Positions 2,342-7,176 of a stretch of 64,000 nt of DNA are shown here, in pieces. The stretch comes from a virus: the IMG/VR virus record IMGVR_UViG_3300046804_004438, positions 46,387 through 110,386 of that record; one strand, 5' to 3'. The number at the start of each line of letters is the position of its first letter. The stretch's first letter is position 1. A program made the position numbers and the translations under genes. The notes beneath the pieces were generated by a model. It saw only the letters and a list, made by a program, of their open reading frames with translations, made no database searches and had not been told where the DNA came from.

Positions 2342-3051
2342 GTAAATTTTTTAATAAGTTCCGGAGCTATCCTGCCTATCTCTAGACCCTTCACTTCTGG
2401 CTTGAGATGTAAACTGGTGTCACCAACAACTGCGATTCTTCTTCCTTTGAATGGTTCTGTTGCCTTTGGATTAGCAATGGTACCATGATTTAGACCACCA
2501 GGGAATGCAACAAACATACCTTCATGTGGGTAGAAATGATACGTATTGAAGTTTGCAGTATTATATTCTCTAATCAAATTATGCTCACTATCTCTTCCAT
2601 CATCCAATGCACCTGGAAATATTTCATTTGGCTTATGCATATTAGCAAAGCTGATCACATCAGAATTTTCAGGGACATCCAAATAATATACAAAAGAAAT
2701 ATCAGAAGATGTATGACTATGATATCTCATATGAAGATCATCTTTGTCAATAATTGACAACCAACATTTCGTGATGTAGATGTCAATCAGGTTTTCTTTA
2801 TATCCTAGACCGTGGATGTATGAACGTATATTAGACGTAACCTCGTTAAAAAATATTTCTAATTGTGGAATCAGATGAATGTCTGTCTGACCATTGTACT
2901 CACCAGTAAGCAGATCTGACGTACTTTCAAATATATAATCTTTTAGATTATTTCTCAACAGTTGATTATATGTTTGGTAGTATTTGAATGTGCTTTTATA
3001 TACAGCGAGTGGAAATAAGAACACAAGCTCAGGATCTTCAACAACACTCAT
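2338..3051 (-). CDS. 2-oxoglutarate/Fe(II) oxygenase-like protein
   Basis: Double-stranded beta-helix (cupin-fold) dioxygenase-like protein of the type common in T4-like marine phages. The iron-site signature is visible: YHSHTSSDISFVYYLDVP (His111/His113, Asp117), then FPGGLNHG (His189) and an arginine in GRRIAV for 2-oxoglutarate. Substrate is unknown. It overlaps gp59 by 4 bp and gp33 by 4 bp, so it is co-translated with replication genes. It is in the same operon as ACP and KAS, which raises the possibility of an acyl substrate; that is inference only. Confidence 0.7.
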   Translation of the reverse strand: MSVVEDPELVFLFPLAVYKSTFKYYQTYNQLLRNNLKDYIFESTSDLLTGEYNGQTDIHLIPQLEIFFNEVTSNIRSYIHGLGYKENLIDIYITKCWLSIIDKDDLHMRYHSHTSSDISFVYYLDVPENSDVISFANMHKPNEIFPGALDDGRDSEHNLIREYNTANFNTYHFYPHEGMFVAFPGGLNHGTIANPKATEPFKGRRIAVVGDTSLHLKPEVKGLEIGRIAPELIKKFT

Positions 3052-3293
3052 ATATGAAGTCTTCCTGACTTTCTGACAAGGTTTAGATTCTCTGCCTCTA
3101 GTTGTAGCTTTGCCTTGAGAACAGTACTTTGTTTAATAATAGATGCAGCTGTCTCTACCTCGATGTTGTTTGTCTCACAATAGTGAACGACGGCATCAAC
3201 ATATGACAGACCATTGAGACCTGCTATCCTATCAATCTCTTTTACAAATTCTGAAACAAACTCAGATGATGATTTTACTTTACCTATTCTCAT
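3048..3293 (-). CDS. 33: Late transcription co-activator gp33-like
   Basis: Small protein (81 aa) with the YVDAVVHYCETNNIEVE segment followed by a helical region and a C-terminal LNLVRKSGRLHI. This matches the compact gp33 form of marine T4-like phages, which bridges RNA polymerase and the sliding clamp to activate TATAAATA late promoters. Position next to gp59 is the T4 order (59-33). Late promoter elements elsewhere in the window fit such an activator. The similarity is short and recalled rather than searched. Confidence 0.72.
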   Translation of the reverse strand: MRIGKVKSSSEFVSEFVKEIDRIAGLNGLSYVDAVVHYCETNNIEVETAASIIKQSTVLKAKLQLEAENLNLVRKSGRLHI

Positions 3294-4456
3294 GAATCCA
3301 ACTTCTTGTATGCTAGGGTTACATTTGTTCCACCAAAACCAAATGAATTGTTGAGAACAACATTTTGTTTTTTGTTTAATAGAGATATGGGAAGAATAAT
3401 GTTTAGTGAAATGGTAGGATCTTGTTGATCAAGATGCCAGTTTGGAATTACACTATTGGTCTCTAGTGATGTTATACATGCAAGTGTTTCTATTGCACCA
3501 GCTGCTCCAAATAAATGACCATGCAATGATTTAGTAGAGCTTACAGGAATATTATTTGTATGACTACCAAACAACTGCTCTATGCTTTGAAGTTCGACAA
3601 GATCACCCATCTGTGTTCCTGTACCGTGTGCGTTGATATATGTAACATCAGAAAGTTCAAAGTCTTTGATCGATTGTTTCATACATTGAACCTGACCTTC
3701 AACATTAGGTTTAGTTACAGACTCGCTTCCATTTGATATTCCGTAACCAACGATCTCACAATATATCTTTGCACCTCTATTAACTGCACTATTATATTCC
3801 TCTAGTACGAATATAACAGAACCTTCTGACATTGTAATTCCATCTCTGTTCTTAGAAAATGGCTTACAATCAGAACTCAGTGCACCCATTGCCTTCCAAT
3901 AAGCAAACTGCAACTGATTGATGCATGCTTCGGAACCTCCGGCAACCAATACCTTGTGCTCACCATATGCAATCTTCTTATATGCTTCACCAATTGCAGT
4001 AGAAGAAGAAGAGCATGCTGTGGAGTATGTTATTGCAGGTCCTTTGATTTGATCTTTGAGTGCAATGAAGTTTGCACCCATGTTAACAACTGAACAAACC
4101 AATGCTGTTGGTTTGACCTTGCCTTTTGCAAATAATGATCTGTAAGCTTCTTCATATGCTAATGCACCACCACCATATCCAACACCAAGAAATATACCCT
4201 CTGGATAGTTGTTACTATCAAAGATTGCATCCTTATACGATAACCATGCTAGTCTTGTAAATCTGTCTGTTATGTTTAGATCATATCTATCAAAGTGCTG
4301 ATCAATGTGTGTAAGTTGATCTACGACATACGCACTACTATCAAATTGATCTACTTTTGAACCTTTAGTACCATTTAGAAAACTATCTCTGACTGTTTGA
4401 TAGTTGTTTCCTAAAGGTGTCCTACAACCAATACCAGTAATAACTACTCGGTTCAT
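3290..4456 (-). CDS. Beta-ketoacyl-ACP synthase (KAS II/FabF-like)
   Basis: Condensing enzyme that elongates an acyl chain on ACP with malonyl-ACP. Full-length thiolase fold (388 aa; FabF is about 410) with every catalytic residue: nucleophile Cys148 in STACSSSS, His277 in NAHGTGT, Lys309 and His314 in STKSLHGHLFGAAGA, and C-terminal GFGGTN. Overlaps ACP upstream and gp33 downstream by 4 bp each, so it is locked in a tightly coupled phage operon. Intact motifs argue for activity. Whether it takes part in fatty acid, lipid A or polyketide-like synthesis cannot be told from sequence. Confidence 0.93.
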   Translation of the reverse strand: MNRVVITGIGCRTPLGNNYQTVRDSFLNGTKGSKVDQFDSSAYVVDQLTHIDQHFDRYDLNITDRFTRLAWLSYKDAIFDSNNYPEGIFLGVGYGGGALAYEEAYRSLFAKGKVKPTALVCSVVNMGANFIALKDQIKGPAITYSTACSSSSTAIGEAYKKIAYGEHKVLVAGGSEACINQLQFAYWKAMGALSSDCKPFSKNRDGITMSEGSVIFVLEEYNSAVNRGAKIYCEIVGYGISNGSESVTKPNVEGQVQCMKQSIKDFELSDVTYINAHGTGTQMGDLVELQSIEQLFGSHTNNIPVSSTKSLHGHLFGAAGAIETLACITSLETNSVIPNWHLDQQDPTISLNIILPISLLNKKQNVVLNNSFGFGGTNVTLAYKKLDS

Positions 4457-4707
4457 TTTTTATCAATGTTGTTGTATAGAAAATCTATTAGTTGATCAAT
4501 TGTTTCTGTTTGTTGTTGAACAGTGATATTCAATTTGAGTTTATCTTCAAGTTCTGAAATGAATGTAATAATTTCCAAAGAATCTAACTTCTCATTTATG
4601 TTTTGTAGATCTTTTAACAAAAAGCTACCATCAAAAGAATTAAGATCAATATTGTATTCTTTTTTAAATTGATCAAATACTATCTGTCTTACTTGATCTC
4701 TTGTCAT
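4453..4707 (-). CDS. Acyl carrier protein
   Basis: 84-residue acidic helical protein with the phosphopantetheine attachment motif LDSLEII (Ser43), followed by the recognition helix ELEDKLKLNI; length is typical of ACP. Four-bp overlap with the KAS gene. It starts only about 14 bp after the tmRNA terminator, with a GGAG Shine-Dalgarno sequence. A matching holo-ACP synthase is encoded at 9464-9856, so the phage can carry both carrier and activating enzyme. Confidence 0.92.
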   Translation of the reverse strand: MTRDQVRQIVFDQFKKEYNIDLNSFDGSFLLKDLQNINEKLDSLEIITFISELEDKLKLNITVQQQTETIDQLIDFLYNNIDKK

Positions 4708-4720
4708 ATCACTACTCCAT

Positions 4721-4757
4721 AAAAAAGGTGGAGAGATTCTGTTTCCAAGCTCTCTCC
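4721..4757 (-). terminator. Intrinsic terminator ending tmRNA
   Basis: Stem GGAGAGA/TCTCTCC (4757-4751 with 4736-4730) followed by ACC and six T on the minus strand. It forms the 3' end of the tmRNA coding piece and precedes the ACP ribosome binding site. Confidence 0.7.
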
Positions 4758-5022
4758 GGGCTCATGCTTAAGCAGCAAGTGCTAAGCTAGGTGCAAAGTT
4801 ATCGTTTGCATTTAGTTTTGTTGCATCAGTCTCAGGTCAGCCTTTACTACACCTGTCGATCCTGTTTCGTCCCCATCAAAAGCATATCCCTTGCCACTAT
4901 CTCATCCGCTAGCAGGACTATTGAGACCAACGTCAAGGGTTGGCGGATATGCTTATGGTGGAGACGCCGGGTACCGCCCCCGGGTCCAGAATGTTTATTC
5001 TACTTCCGTCAACGACATCAGC
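4727..5022 (-). ncRNA. ssrA: tmRNA, circularly permuted two-piece (alphaproteobacterial type)
   Basis: Ribosome-rescue RNA in permuted order. Acceptor piece first: T-arm CCGGG-GGCGGTA-CCCGG, then acceptor strand CGTCTCC, discriminator A and encoded CCA (CCA end at 4956). An intervening loop is closed by AAGCATATCC/GGATATGCTT. The coding piece then starts GGGGACG at 4874. The two acceptor strands pair over 7 bp with a wobble at the third pair, the G3-U70 alanine identity element. The tag frame (4809-4768) reads ANDNFAPSLALAA then TAA, the resume codon being GCA. The tag ends ALAA as host proteases prefer. The 5' boundary is inferred from the promoter. Confidence 0.93.
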
Positions 5023-5028
5023 ATTATA

Positions 5029-5057
5029 TTTATAGCACATTATATTGTATAAGTCAA
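5029..5057 (-). promoter_or_regulatory. Sigma70-like promoter for tmRNA
   Basis: Minus strand: TTGACT (5057-5052), 17-bp spacer, TATAAA (5034-5029). Predicted start near 5022, just before the acceptor piece. Confidence 0.75.
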
Positions 5058-5286: not shown

Positions 5287-5489
5287 TATACCTTACCCCA
5301 GTCTATACTATTCCATATTCTTTCATTAACAAAATAGGAGAGTGTCCATAGGCAATTAATTATTATTGTAGGTATGATTGCCTGAGTCATGTTCTGACCA
5401 GTAATCAGTAGCATGATATAAGTTGTAAGGATAACAAACAATCTGTACAAAAGTGATTTGACTATTGTTCTTTTTATTGTTGCTTTCAT
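5286..5489 (-). CDS. DUF2061-like small membrane protein
   Basis: 67 residues with two hydrophobic helices (LYRLFVILTTYIMLLITG and the following AIIPTIIINCLWTLSYF) preceded by a basic N-terminus and ending NERIWNSIDWGKV. This layout, including the terminal NERIW motif, is that of the DUF2061 family of two-helix membrane proteins. Function unknown. Overlaps the upstream exonuclease gene by 4 bp. Confidence 0.65.
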   Translation of the reverse strand: MKATIKRTIVKSLLYRLFVILTTYIMLLITGQNMTQAIIPTIIINCLWTLSYFVNERIWNSIDWGKV

Positions 5490-6187
5490 ACGTCATACCT
5501 TACCTTATATTGATGCCTTACTTCTAGTAATTGTTTAACAAAATCATCTCTTCTATCTTCAAACACTTGTGGTGTGTCACCATCGACAGATATGAGAATT
5601 ACAATTCTATTTACTGGTATCTGAAATCTTTCTTCATACATTATTGCATATGCTGCAGCCTGGCAAAAATAGTTTGTAATATAATCTCTATTCTTGTGTT
5701 TTGTTGCAGTCTTGAAATCTATAATAGATAACTTACCTTTCCATTCTGCAACACAATCTACTGTTCCTGCCATTTGTAAGAAGTCAGAATATAATCTAGT
5801 TTCTTGCAAATGAATATTATCAATATAGTTATCAAGAAAAGGTTTTATCTCTCCAAAATTAATTGTATCATTATAATTATATTTACTTGAATCTATTTCT
5901 TCGTTGTCAAGATATTTCTCAAACAACTCATGCATGCGAGTCCCACGGACAGATGCCTTTGAACTTATCTTATTGGCTTCTTCGTTTCCTACTCTTTGTC
6001 TCCATTGTTGAATTGACTTTTCATTCATCAATCCTGTAACCGTTGTCACCGATGGATAAAGGGCACCGGTAGGTGACTTATAATACCTACCGGTGTCTGT
6101 ATTTACTTGTTCTAGAACTTCTTCATCAAGGGTCTTTTTGAGATGTGTGAAGTGCTTGCGCTGGGCTAAAATGTCCTTGAGTTGCAT
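5486..6187 (-). CDS. PD-(D/E)XK exonuclease (Cas4/RecB-like)
   Basis: Restriction-fold nuclease domain: AGTVDCVAEWKGKLSIIDFKTA carries the Asp and the D-F-K catalytic signature, preceded by RGTRMHELFEKYL (conserved helix with Glu) and followed by a QAAAYAIMYEE helix (QxxxY motif typical of Cas4/AddB-type nucleases). There are no clear cluster cysteines. Probably acts in phage DNA recombination or processing; it follows phoH in a run of overlapping genes, the two overlapping by 62 bp. Confidence 0.8.
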   Translation of the reverse strand: MQLKDILAQRKHFTHLKKTLDEEVLEQVNTDTGRYYKSPTGALYPSVTTVTGLMNEKSIQQWRQRVGNEEANKISSKASVRGTRMHELFEKYLDNEEIDSSKYNYNDTINFGEIKPFLDNYIDNIHLQETRLYSDFLQMAGTVDCVAEWKGKLSIIDFKTATKHKNRDYITNYFCQAAAYAIMYEERFQIPVNRIVILISVDGDTPQVFEDRRDDFVKQLLEVRHQYKVRYDV

Positions 6188-6926
6188 TATGTACTATTCC
6201 GTTTTCTATCATATTCTTTTTAATTATAAAGTCTTTTACTAGCCCAGATCTAACAATATCATTTTCATTAAATTCTATACATGAGAAGTACTTAGGCATC
6301 TTATTAAGTATCTTCATGAACTTATGAATGCCTTCTCTTTCATCATCCCATTTTAGATCAGTCTGTCTATAATCTCCACAGAAAATAATCTTTGAACTTT
6401 GACCTACACGAGTAATGATTGTATTTAATTCTTGATATGTCATGTTCTGACATTCGTCGACAATTATGATTGTATTGTCTAGTGTGAGGCCTCTAAGGAA
6501 AGATGAGGTCTCAAAATTTATCATACCTTTTTGTTTTAGGATTTCGTATGCATCGCCTCTGTTGAATAACTCTGTACAGATAGCTTGGTATGGTGCTTCA
6601 TATACTTTTGATTTATCTTTTATTGATCCTGGAAGGAATCCCATATCGCGAGAAGGGACTACGGAGCGAATTATTGTAACACTGCTATAATCTCTATACT
6701 CTTCTATTTCTGATAATGCAAGGTAAAGTGATATGAACGATTTACCCGTACCTGGAAGACCATGAATAAGAAGATGTTTACCGTTTATAAATTCTTTAAA
6801 TACTCTCTCTTGATTTGCTGTCTTAGGTGTTACTGTTTTAAGTTCGAGGTTATTTTTATTTTGTCTTTGCTCCTGACGCTTTTGTTGCTTTAGTAGTCTT
6901 TTTTCTGCGCGGGATAATCTTTCCAT
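6126..6926 (-). CDS. PhoH-like ATPase
   Basis: P-loop NTPase of the PhoH family, widespread in marine phages. Walker A HGLPGTGKS, Walker B IIIVDECQNM, and the family signature GDYRQTDL are present. Start chosen at the ATG reading MERLSRAEKRLL, because a longer frame would run into the upstream gene, whose stop is at 6940. The N-terminus is a basic, Gln-rich helix. Role in phage biology unresolved; often called phosphate-starvation-related, though an RNA-related function is also proposed. Confidence 0.88.
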   Translation of the reverse strand: MERLSRAEKRLLKQQKRQEQRQNKNNLELKTVTPKTANQERVFKEFINGKHLLIHGLPGTGKSFISLYLALSEIEEYRDYSSVTIIRSVVPSRDMGFLPGSIKDKSKVYEAPYQAICTELFNRGDAYEILKQKGMINFETSSFLRGLTLDNTIIIVDECQNMTYQELNTIITRVGQSSKIIFCGDYRQTDLKWDDEREGIHKFMKILNKMPKYFSCIEFNENDIVRSGLVKDFIIKKNMIENGIVHNATQGHFSPAQALHTSQKDP

Positions 6927-6939
6927 ATAGCACCTCGTG

Positions 6940-7176
6940 TTACCATGTGTTAATAGTATTCTTCCTCCCACTAGCACTTTTGATACGCTTCAAGACATCA
7001 CGAAAACCAGAGTCAGGCTTCTTGAGGCCTAACCTGGTTGGATCCGCTATATTGGGAACGGAGAATACTTGTTGAAGATGTGGATTGTTTTCTGTGTAGG
7101 CGTCGTATTCAGAGATCGGCATAGATATGTCGAACTCTTTATTGGTCTTTGTATCTAAAAAAGTATAATTAGCCAT
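6940..7176 (-). CDS. Conserved marine-phage protein, unknown function
   Basis: 78 residues from ATG (MANYTFLDTKTNKEFD); an in-frame GTG six bases upstream is a weaker alternative. The pattern of NPHLQQVFSVPNIADPTRLG, then DSGFRDVLKRI near the end, is recalled from T4-like marine phages, sometimes annotated FmdB-like although the zinc cysteines are absent here. Overlaps the preceding gene by 8 bp. Confidence 0.6.
   Translation of the reverse strand: MANYTFLDTKTNKEFDISMPISEYDAYTENNPHLQQVFSVPNIADPTRLGLKKPDSGFRDVLKRIKSASGRKNTINTW

What the first reader, a model, noticed from the sequence alone, without database searches (positions are those of the whole stretch)
4721..5057. Phage-encoded permuted two-piece tmRNA with its own promoter
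Acceptor half, intervening loop and coding half are all readable, with a 7-bp acceptor stem containing the G3-U70 alanine pair, an encoded CCA and the tag ANDNFAPSLALAA. The permuted layout is an alphaproteobacterial trait, so it points to the host lineage and was probably captured from a host. Its promoter is TTGACT-17-TATAAA and its terminator abuts the ACP gene. A phage that brings its own rescue RNA may protect its translation or redirect tagged host proteins to proteolysis.
Basis: partly seen in the sequence, partly recalled or inferred. Interest (0 to 1): 0.85.

Follow-up and report, generated by a model that had tools for sequence, protein, structure and literature searches.

The report
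Phage two-piece ribosome-rescue RNA gene
This T4-like phage carries an intact gene for a two-piece ribosome-rescue RNA (tmRNA), a kind already reported in marine phages; here it turns out to sit in the same genome slot in nearly all related phages, behind a promoter that combines a host-type and a phage-late signal.

Summary
Window 5057-4721 (-) is a complete permuted (two-piece) tmRNA gene: alpha_tmRNA RF01849 137.5 bits, tmRNA_permuted RF04321 109.7 bits, 7-bp acceptor stem with G3-U70, encoded CCA, tag ANDNFAPSLALAA, promoter TTGACT-17-TATAAATA, 3' hairpin plus T6, ACP start 14 nt on. The carrier is a 110-kb virus record of T4-like phage type.

Phage-encoded permuted tmRNA is known (Methylophilales phage Melnitz, PMC9004378), so this is a new member of a known kind.

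The comparative evidence changes the reading in four ways. (1) The gene is a fixture: 49 of 51 distinct PhoH-nuclease-gp33 loci found without using tmRNA carry it in this slot, as do Melnitz and HTVC008M; this is old retention, not a recent capture. (2) TATAAATA is the T4-type late-promoter box; at tmRNA genes it is coupled to a sigma70 -35 box (64/110) far more than elsewhere (6/133). I infer early and late transcription. (3) Acceptor, anticodon-like and 3' helices show compensatory changes, and the excised loop is closed by a covarying stem. (4) Tags vary but mostly keep ANDN...LAA. The record shows no SmpB or ClpP, so it must use the host's. Expression and benefit are untested.

The parts
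5052..5057 (-). -35 box TTGACT
   Evidence: sequence; TTGACA with at most 1 mismatch at spacer 15-19 in 64 of 110 non-redundant tmRNA genes having the -10/late box, against 6 of 133 TATAAATA sites elsewhere; same arrangement in Melnitz
5027..5034 (-). TATAAATA: -10 region and T4-type late-promoter box
   Evidence: exact in 82 and at most 1 mismatch in 110 of 125 tmRNA genes; shuffled 2.5 and 34. Other TATAAATA sites in this genome precede head closure, tail tube cap, baseplate wedge and an HNH/endonuclease VII-like gene
4956..5017 (-). acceptor piece: 5' strand of the anticodon-like helix, T-arm (4983-4979/4971-4967), acceptor 3' strand 4966-4960, A4959, CCA 4958-4956 (mature 5' end not determined)
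   Evidence: RF01849 and RF04321 alignments
4875..4955 (-). 81-nt intervening segment, presumably removed in processing; closing arms AAGCATATCC (4954-4945) and GGATATGCTT (4889-4880)
   Evidence: own-arm helix median 11 bp against 5 for arms swapped between genes (105 genes, 96 distinct left arms)
4727..4874 (-). coding piece: acceptor 5' strand 4874-4868, tag frame, 3' hairpin
   Evidence: RF01849
4768..4809 (-). tag reading frame ANDNFAPSLALAA with stop; resume codon GCA
4721..4757 (-). 3' hairpin with GGAAACAGAA loop and T6 run (conserved RNA 3' stem, probable terminator)
   Evidence: sequence; hairpin pairs kept in 26-29 of 30 aligned genes with many compensatory changes
3048..3293 (-). 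gp33-like late-transcription coactivator, syntenic marker
   Evidence: PF16805 E 2.7e-16
5486..6187 (-). PD-(D/E)XK nuclease upstream, syntenic marker
   Evidence: PF12705 E 4.2e-6; synteny table
6126..6977 (-). PhoH-like protein, syntenic marker
   Evidence: PF02562 E 1e-41

Best explanation
A functional, phage-encoded two-piece tmRNA that T4-like (Kyanoviridae-like) phages have long kept between the PhoH-nuclease genes and gp33. One precursor is transcribed from TTGACT-17-TATAAATA, a promoter usable by host sigma70 polymerase early and by the phage late sigma/gp33 polymerase late. The 81-nt loop, closed by its own stem, is cut out by host tRNA-processing enzymes, leaving an acceptor piece and a coding piece held by the acceptor and anticodon-like helices. 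Host AlaRS charges it through G3-U70; host SmpB carries it to ribosomes stalled on broken mRNAs; the tag ANDNFAPSLALAA sends the fragment to host ClpXP. The likely benefit is keeping ribosomes recycled through infection, while mRNAs are being cut and host transcription is off. Shown: gene anatomy, conservation, covariation, promoter architecture, no SmpB or ClpP match in this record. Inferred: transcription timing, processing, charging, tagging, benefit.
For: RF01849/RF04321. G3-U70 in all 94 hits of a finder that does not require it; discriminator A and CCA in 128 of 128 non-redundant genes, with acceptor pairs 5-68 and 6-67 in 5-6 pair types. The anticodon-like helix joining the two pieces and the 3' hairpin change in compensation. 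Own-arm closing stem of the loop. Slot conservation in 49 of 51 loci and in Melnitz and HTVC008M. Hybrid promoter. Tags: 106 of 123 end in LAA and 104 contain ANDN (the set is partly selected on that motif). No SmpB in this record or in 35 others.
Against: No expression, processing or tagging data. The RNA lacks the CCGUUA.CGG element before the tag (part of PK1) that 4 of 5 bacterial comparators have, so its efficiency is uncertain. Two of 51 related loci lack it in the slot, so it is dispensable there in some phages. The coding half tracks core genes only weakly (r 0.35-0.38), so halves and tags are exchanged or change fast. TATAAATA could be read as a sigma70 -10 box alone.
Confidence: 0.77

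Rival explanations
1. It acts mainly as a weapon or salvage device: extra tmRNA tags host nascent proteins and feeds them to proteolysis to recycle amino acids, as proposed for Melnitz (PMC9004378).
For: Tag ends in LAA, the ClpXP-type degron; the -35 box allows early expression.
Against: tmRNA tags whatever ribosome is stalled and has no known way to choose host proteins; the late box means it would also act on phage proteins; no phage protease or adaptor found in this record.
Confidence: 0.12
2. It competes with or replaces a host tmRNA that is lost, degraded or attacked by a defence system during infection (counter-defence).
For: Near-universal retention in the clade; tag and body differ from the bacterial comparators; no exact ANDNFAPSLALAA-TAA was found in the genome collection.
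Against: No defence against tmRNA was tested or found here; the genome-collection null has no positive control in that collection.
Confidence: 0.2
3. A captured, non-functional remnant of an attachment site or of transduced host DNA.
For: ssrA is a common integration site (PMC9004378, PMC11915505).
Against: Complete gene with promoter, compensatory changes and fixed synteny in many diverged phages; no tyrosine integrase in the record.
Confidence: 0.02
4. The promoter is purely host sigma70-type (early), and TATAAATA is only an A-rich -10 box.
For: TATAAA matches 5 of 6 of TATAAT; the TTGACA box is enriched at 17 nt; Buchholz et al. called the Melnitz promoter early (PMC9004378).
Against: Positions 7-8 (TA) are 98% conserved and TATAAT is not the preferred form; 46 of 110 genes keep the box without a good -35 box; the same octamer without -35 stands before virion genes.
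Confidence: 0.25

Closest known systems
Methylophilales phage Melnitz EXVC044M ssrA (PMC9004378; MZ577097)
   Same: Permuted tmRNA, same slot PhoH-PDDEXK-tmRNA-gp33-gp59, same promoter form TTGACA-17-TATAAATA and stem-closed loop.
   Different: Melnitz is reported with a glutamine riboswitch at its ssrA; no riboswitch match here. Here ACP and KAS genes lie between tmRNA and gp33, the tag differs, and the loop is 81 nt, shorter than in Melnitz.
Pelagibacter phage HTVC008M (NC_020484)
   Same: RF04321 match of 90.6 bits at 145161-145370 between nuclease and gp33.
   Different: Not annotated as tmRNA in the record; different tag; TATAAATA and -35 box not evident.
Roseophage and Rhodobacter phages DSS3_MAL1, RcXuper, RcRudolph
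   Same: Permuted alpha-type tmRNA in phage genomes.
   Different: Different genomic neighbourhood; DSS3_MAL1 and RcXuper keep the PK1-like element before the tag.
Alphaproteobacterial two-piece tmRNA (Rfam RF01849)
   Same: Whole-model match, acceptor and T-arm, tag start ANDN, 3' hairpin.
   Different: Shorter body: positions of the model before and after the tag are missing; late-type promoter box.

Membership tests
permuted (two-piece) tmRNA | covariance-model score above the curated cut-off | tested here: met
   RF01849 137.5 vs 50; RF04321 109.7 vs 47
permuted (two-piece) tmRNA | 3' acceptor piece precedes the 5' coding piece, with an intervening segment | tested here: met
   CCA at 4958-4956, 81-nt segment, then GGGGACG at 4874
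permuted (two-piece) tmRNA | alanyl identity: G3-U70, discriminator A, CCA | tested here: met
permuted (two-piece) tmRNA | tag reading frame with resume codon, stop and hydrophobic C-terminus | tested here: met
   ANDNFAPSLALAA
permuted (two-piece) tmRNA | compensatory changes in its helices | tested here: met
alphaproteobacterial-type tmRNA body | PK1 element CCGUUA.CGG before the tag (not required by the permuted Rfam model, which pairs only the tRNA-like domain, PMC11915505) | tested here: not met
   motif absent here; present in 4 of 128 phage and 4 of 5 bacterial sequences. A motif search only; another pseudoknot is not excluded
permuted (two-piece) tmRNA | mature RNA in two pieces, SmpB binding, trans-translation | not testable with these tools
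   needs RNA and protein from infected cells
T4-type late promoter | TATAAATA octamer upstream, shared with virion genes of the same genome | tested here: met
T4-type late promoter | use by the gp55/gp33/gp45 system late in infection | not testable with these tools
   gp33 homologue present; no expression data
sigma70 promoter | TTGACA-like box 17 nt upstream of the -10 box | tested here: met

The most novel reading that the evidence does not exclude
In this phage clade tmRNA is a core gene of the lytic programme. A host-type gene was rewired by turning its -10 box into the phage late box while the -35 box was kept, so the phage supplies the cell's ribosome-rescue capacity from entry to lysis, with a slimmed RNA body and freely exchanged tags and loops.
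Probability: 0.4. Interest if true: 0.62.

Novelty: new member of a known kind. Interest (0 to 1): 0.42.

Why it matters
Phage-borne tmRNA was described as common but not defining in Melnitz-like phages (17 of 47 contigs, PMC9004378). In this related set it is close to universal in one slot and has a promoter signature for early plus late use. That gives a concrete, testable case that ribosome rescue is part of a lytic programme. The permuted genes are also easy to miss: ARAGORN as run here missed this one, and HTVC008M's record does not annotate its copy.

Tried and rejected
Tag look-up in 84,980 species genomes: no match for ANDNFAPSLALAA or ANDN/EN-FAPxLALAA followed by TAA. The pattern works on the window and on viral contigs, but there was no positive control in the genome collection, and other stop codons were not covered. 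No bacterial relatives could be drawn around a virus record, so a host-against-phage tree was not made; five bacterial tmRNAs from plasmid and chromid records were used instead. A riboswitch as in Melnitz was sought and not found. An integration-site remnant was rejected. Blastn of the tmRNA against phage records finds only a short conserved stretch, so covariance models were used. The first script for non-redundant genes required acceptor strands to start GGG, so its 128 of 128 G3 is not independent; the G3-U70 claim rests.

Full report
WHAT IS THERE. On the minus strand of the window, 5057 to 4721, lies a complete permuted tmRNA gene. Rfam alpha_tmRNA matches over its whole model (5061-4727, 137.5 bits, E 1.9e-37) and the general permuted model also matches (109.7 bits). 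Read 5' to 3': TTGACT (5057-5052), 17 nt, TATAAATA (5034-5027), acceptor piece ending in CCA (4958-4956), 81 nt of intervening sequence, coding piece starting GGGGACG (4874-4868), tag frame ANDNFAPSLALAA-stop (4809-4768), hairpin GGAGAGA/UCUCUCC and T6 (4757-4721); ACP starts at 4707. ARAGORN as run by the tool does not report it.

THE CARRIER. The window is 46387-110386 of a 110,386-bp virus record. Around the gene are PhoH, a PD-(D/E)XK nuclease, ACP, beta-ketoacyl-ACP synthase, the late-transcription coactivator gp33, a 2OG-Fe(II) oxygenase, gp59 and gp32. Elsewhere there are primase, ribonucleotide reductase, baseplate wedge, tail tube, tail tube cap and head closure proteins. It is a T4-like phage related to Kyanoviridae such as Melnitz and HTVC008M. 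It has no SmpB, ClpP or tyrosine integrase match; 35 phage records searched together also lack SmpB. As the record may be incomplete, absence is not proof.

CONSERVATION. Relatives were sought by PhoH, gp32 and KAS, not by tmRNA. Of 51 distinct loci with PhoH, nuclease and gp33 from the PhoH and gp32 searches, 49 hold a tmRNA between nuclease and gp33; the nuclease identity to this phage runs from 37 to 82%. Infernal confirms tmRNA in 46 of 49 selected records, 44 of them over the RF04321 cut-off; one of the two exceptions (L278) has a tmRNA elsewhere in its record. Melnitz has the same gene order, and HTVC008M has an unannotated RF04321 match in the same interval. The acceptor half follows the distances of PhoH, nuclease and gp33 (r 0.65-0.68), the coding half less (0.35-0.38), the loop least (0.15-0.21). 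So the gene is old in the slot, while its coding half, tag and loop are exchanged or change fast.

IS IT FUNCTIONAL? In 128 non-redundant phage genes the discriminator-CCA is always ACCA; acceptor pairs 5-68 and 6-67 occur in five to six pair types, and T-stem pairs in up to four. G3-U70 was found in all 94 hits of a finder that does not demand it. In an alignment of 30 related genes the helix that joins the two pieces, the T-stem, the acceptor stem and the 3' hairpin keep pairing through changes on both sides. The intervening loop is closed by a stem whose arms differ in nearly every gene (96 distinct left arms among 105) yet pair with their own partner: median 11 bp, against 5 when partners are swapped. 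That fits a precursor from which the loop is removed. The window RNA lacks the CCGUUA.CGG element that precedes the tag in 4 of 5 bacterial comparators and in only 4 of 128 phage genes: a reduced body. Tags are diverse (88 distinct among 123) but mostly keep ANDN and end in LAA; part of this set was fetched with an ANDN-like pattern, so the ANDN share is inflated.

PROMOTER. The octamer TATAAATA stands before 82 of 125 tmRNA genes exactly and before 110 with at most one mismatch; shuffles give 2.5 and 34. In this genome other intergenic TATAAATA sites precede head closure, tail tube cap, baseplate wedge and HNH/endonuclease VII-like genes, without a -35 box. As a bare octamer it is not enriched in the window as a whole (6 found, 7.9 expected); the evidence is its position. 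At tmRNA genes, 64 of 110 have TTGACA (at most 1 mismatch), mostly at a spacer of exactly 17, against 6 of 133 TATAAATA sites elsewhere in the relatives (Fisher p 2e-21; relatedness of the sequences makes this p too small). Melnitz has TTGACA-17-TATAAATA too, where the authors wrote of an early promoter (PMC9004378). I infer a combined early and late promoter; no expression data were available.

HOW IT LIKELY WORKS. Host polymerase, then phage-modified polymerase, makes a precursor. Host tRNA-processing enzymes remove the loop; AlaRS charges the acceptor piece; host SmpB brings it to stalled ribosomes; the tag leads to host ClpXP. These steps follow from established tmRNA biology and are not shown here. 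The likely benefit is ribosome recycling while mRNAs are cut. Replacement of a host tmRNA that is lost or attacked cannot be excluded.

KNOWN OR NEW. Phage-encoded two-piece tmRNA is known: Buchholz et al. 2022 (PMC9004378) list 53 of 133 unique phage tmRNA structures as two-piece; the tmRNA database of 2025 (PMC11915505) holds 79 phage tmRNAs. New here, as far as the searched papers show, are the near-fixed slot in this clade, the combined promoter signature, and the loop-stem covariation in phages.

Noticed in passing
window 3290-4707 (-): ACP (with DSL motif) and a beta-ketoacyl-ACP synthase with the Cys-His-His residues apparently intact, inserted between tmRNA and gp33 in this phage and in only 3 of the 51 distinct related loci; a possible phage acyl-chain or lipid-modifying pair.
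   Followed up: partly
L245 1293-1727 (+): An ORF of 144 aa with a weak HNH match (21.1 bits, just below cut-off) lies inside the intervening loop of a phage tmRNA gene, between the closing arms: a possible homing endonuclease in a processed-out loop.
   Followed up: partly
L145, L147, L150, L158, L246: These tmRNA genes share a similar loop sequence (CCTGCGAGA..GTTGCTTTAGGGTAGG) although their tags or arms differ, so loops seem to move between genes or carry a function of their own.
   Followed up: no
L141, L147, L155, L162: Unusual long tags such as ARTASNDNVPYSAMKIAA and GMLKASNDNVPYSAMKVAA, the latter with a Gly resume codon, and what looks like an H-type pseudoknot in place of the 3' hairpin.
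   Followed up: no
NC_020484.1 145103-145414 (HTVC008M; L287): Unannotated tmRNA in the record of the SAR11 phage HTVC008M.
   Followed up: yes
window 38185-62703 (-): Twelve tRNA genes scattered over the upper part of the window.
   Followed up: no
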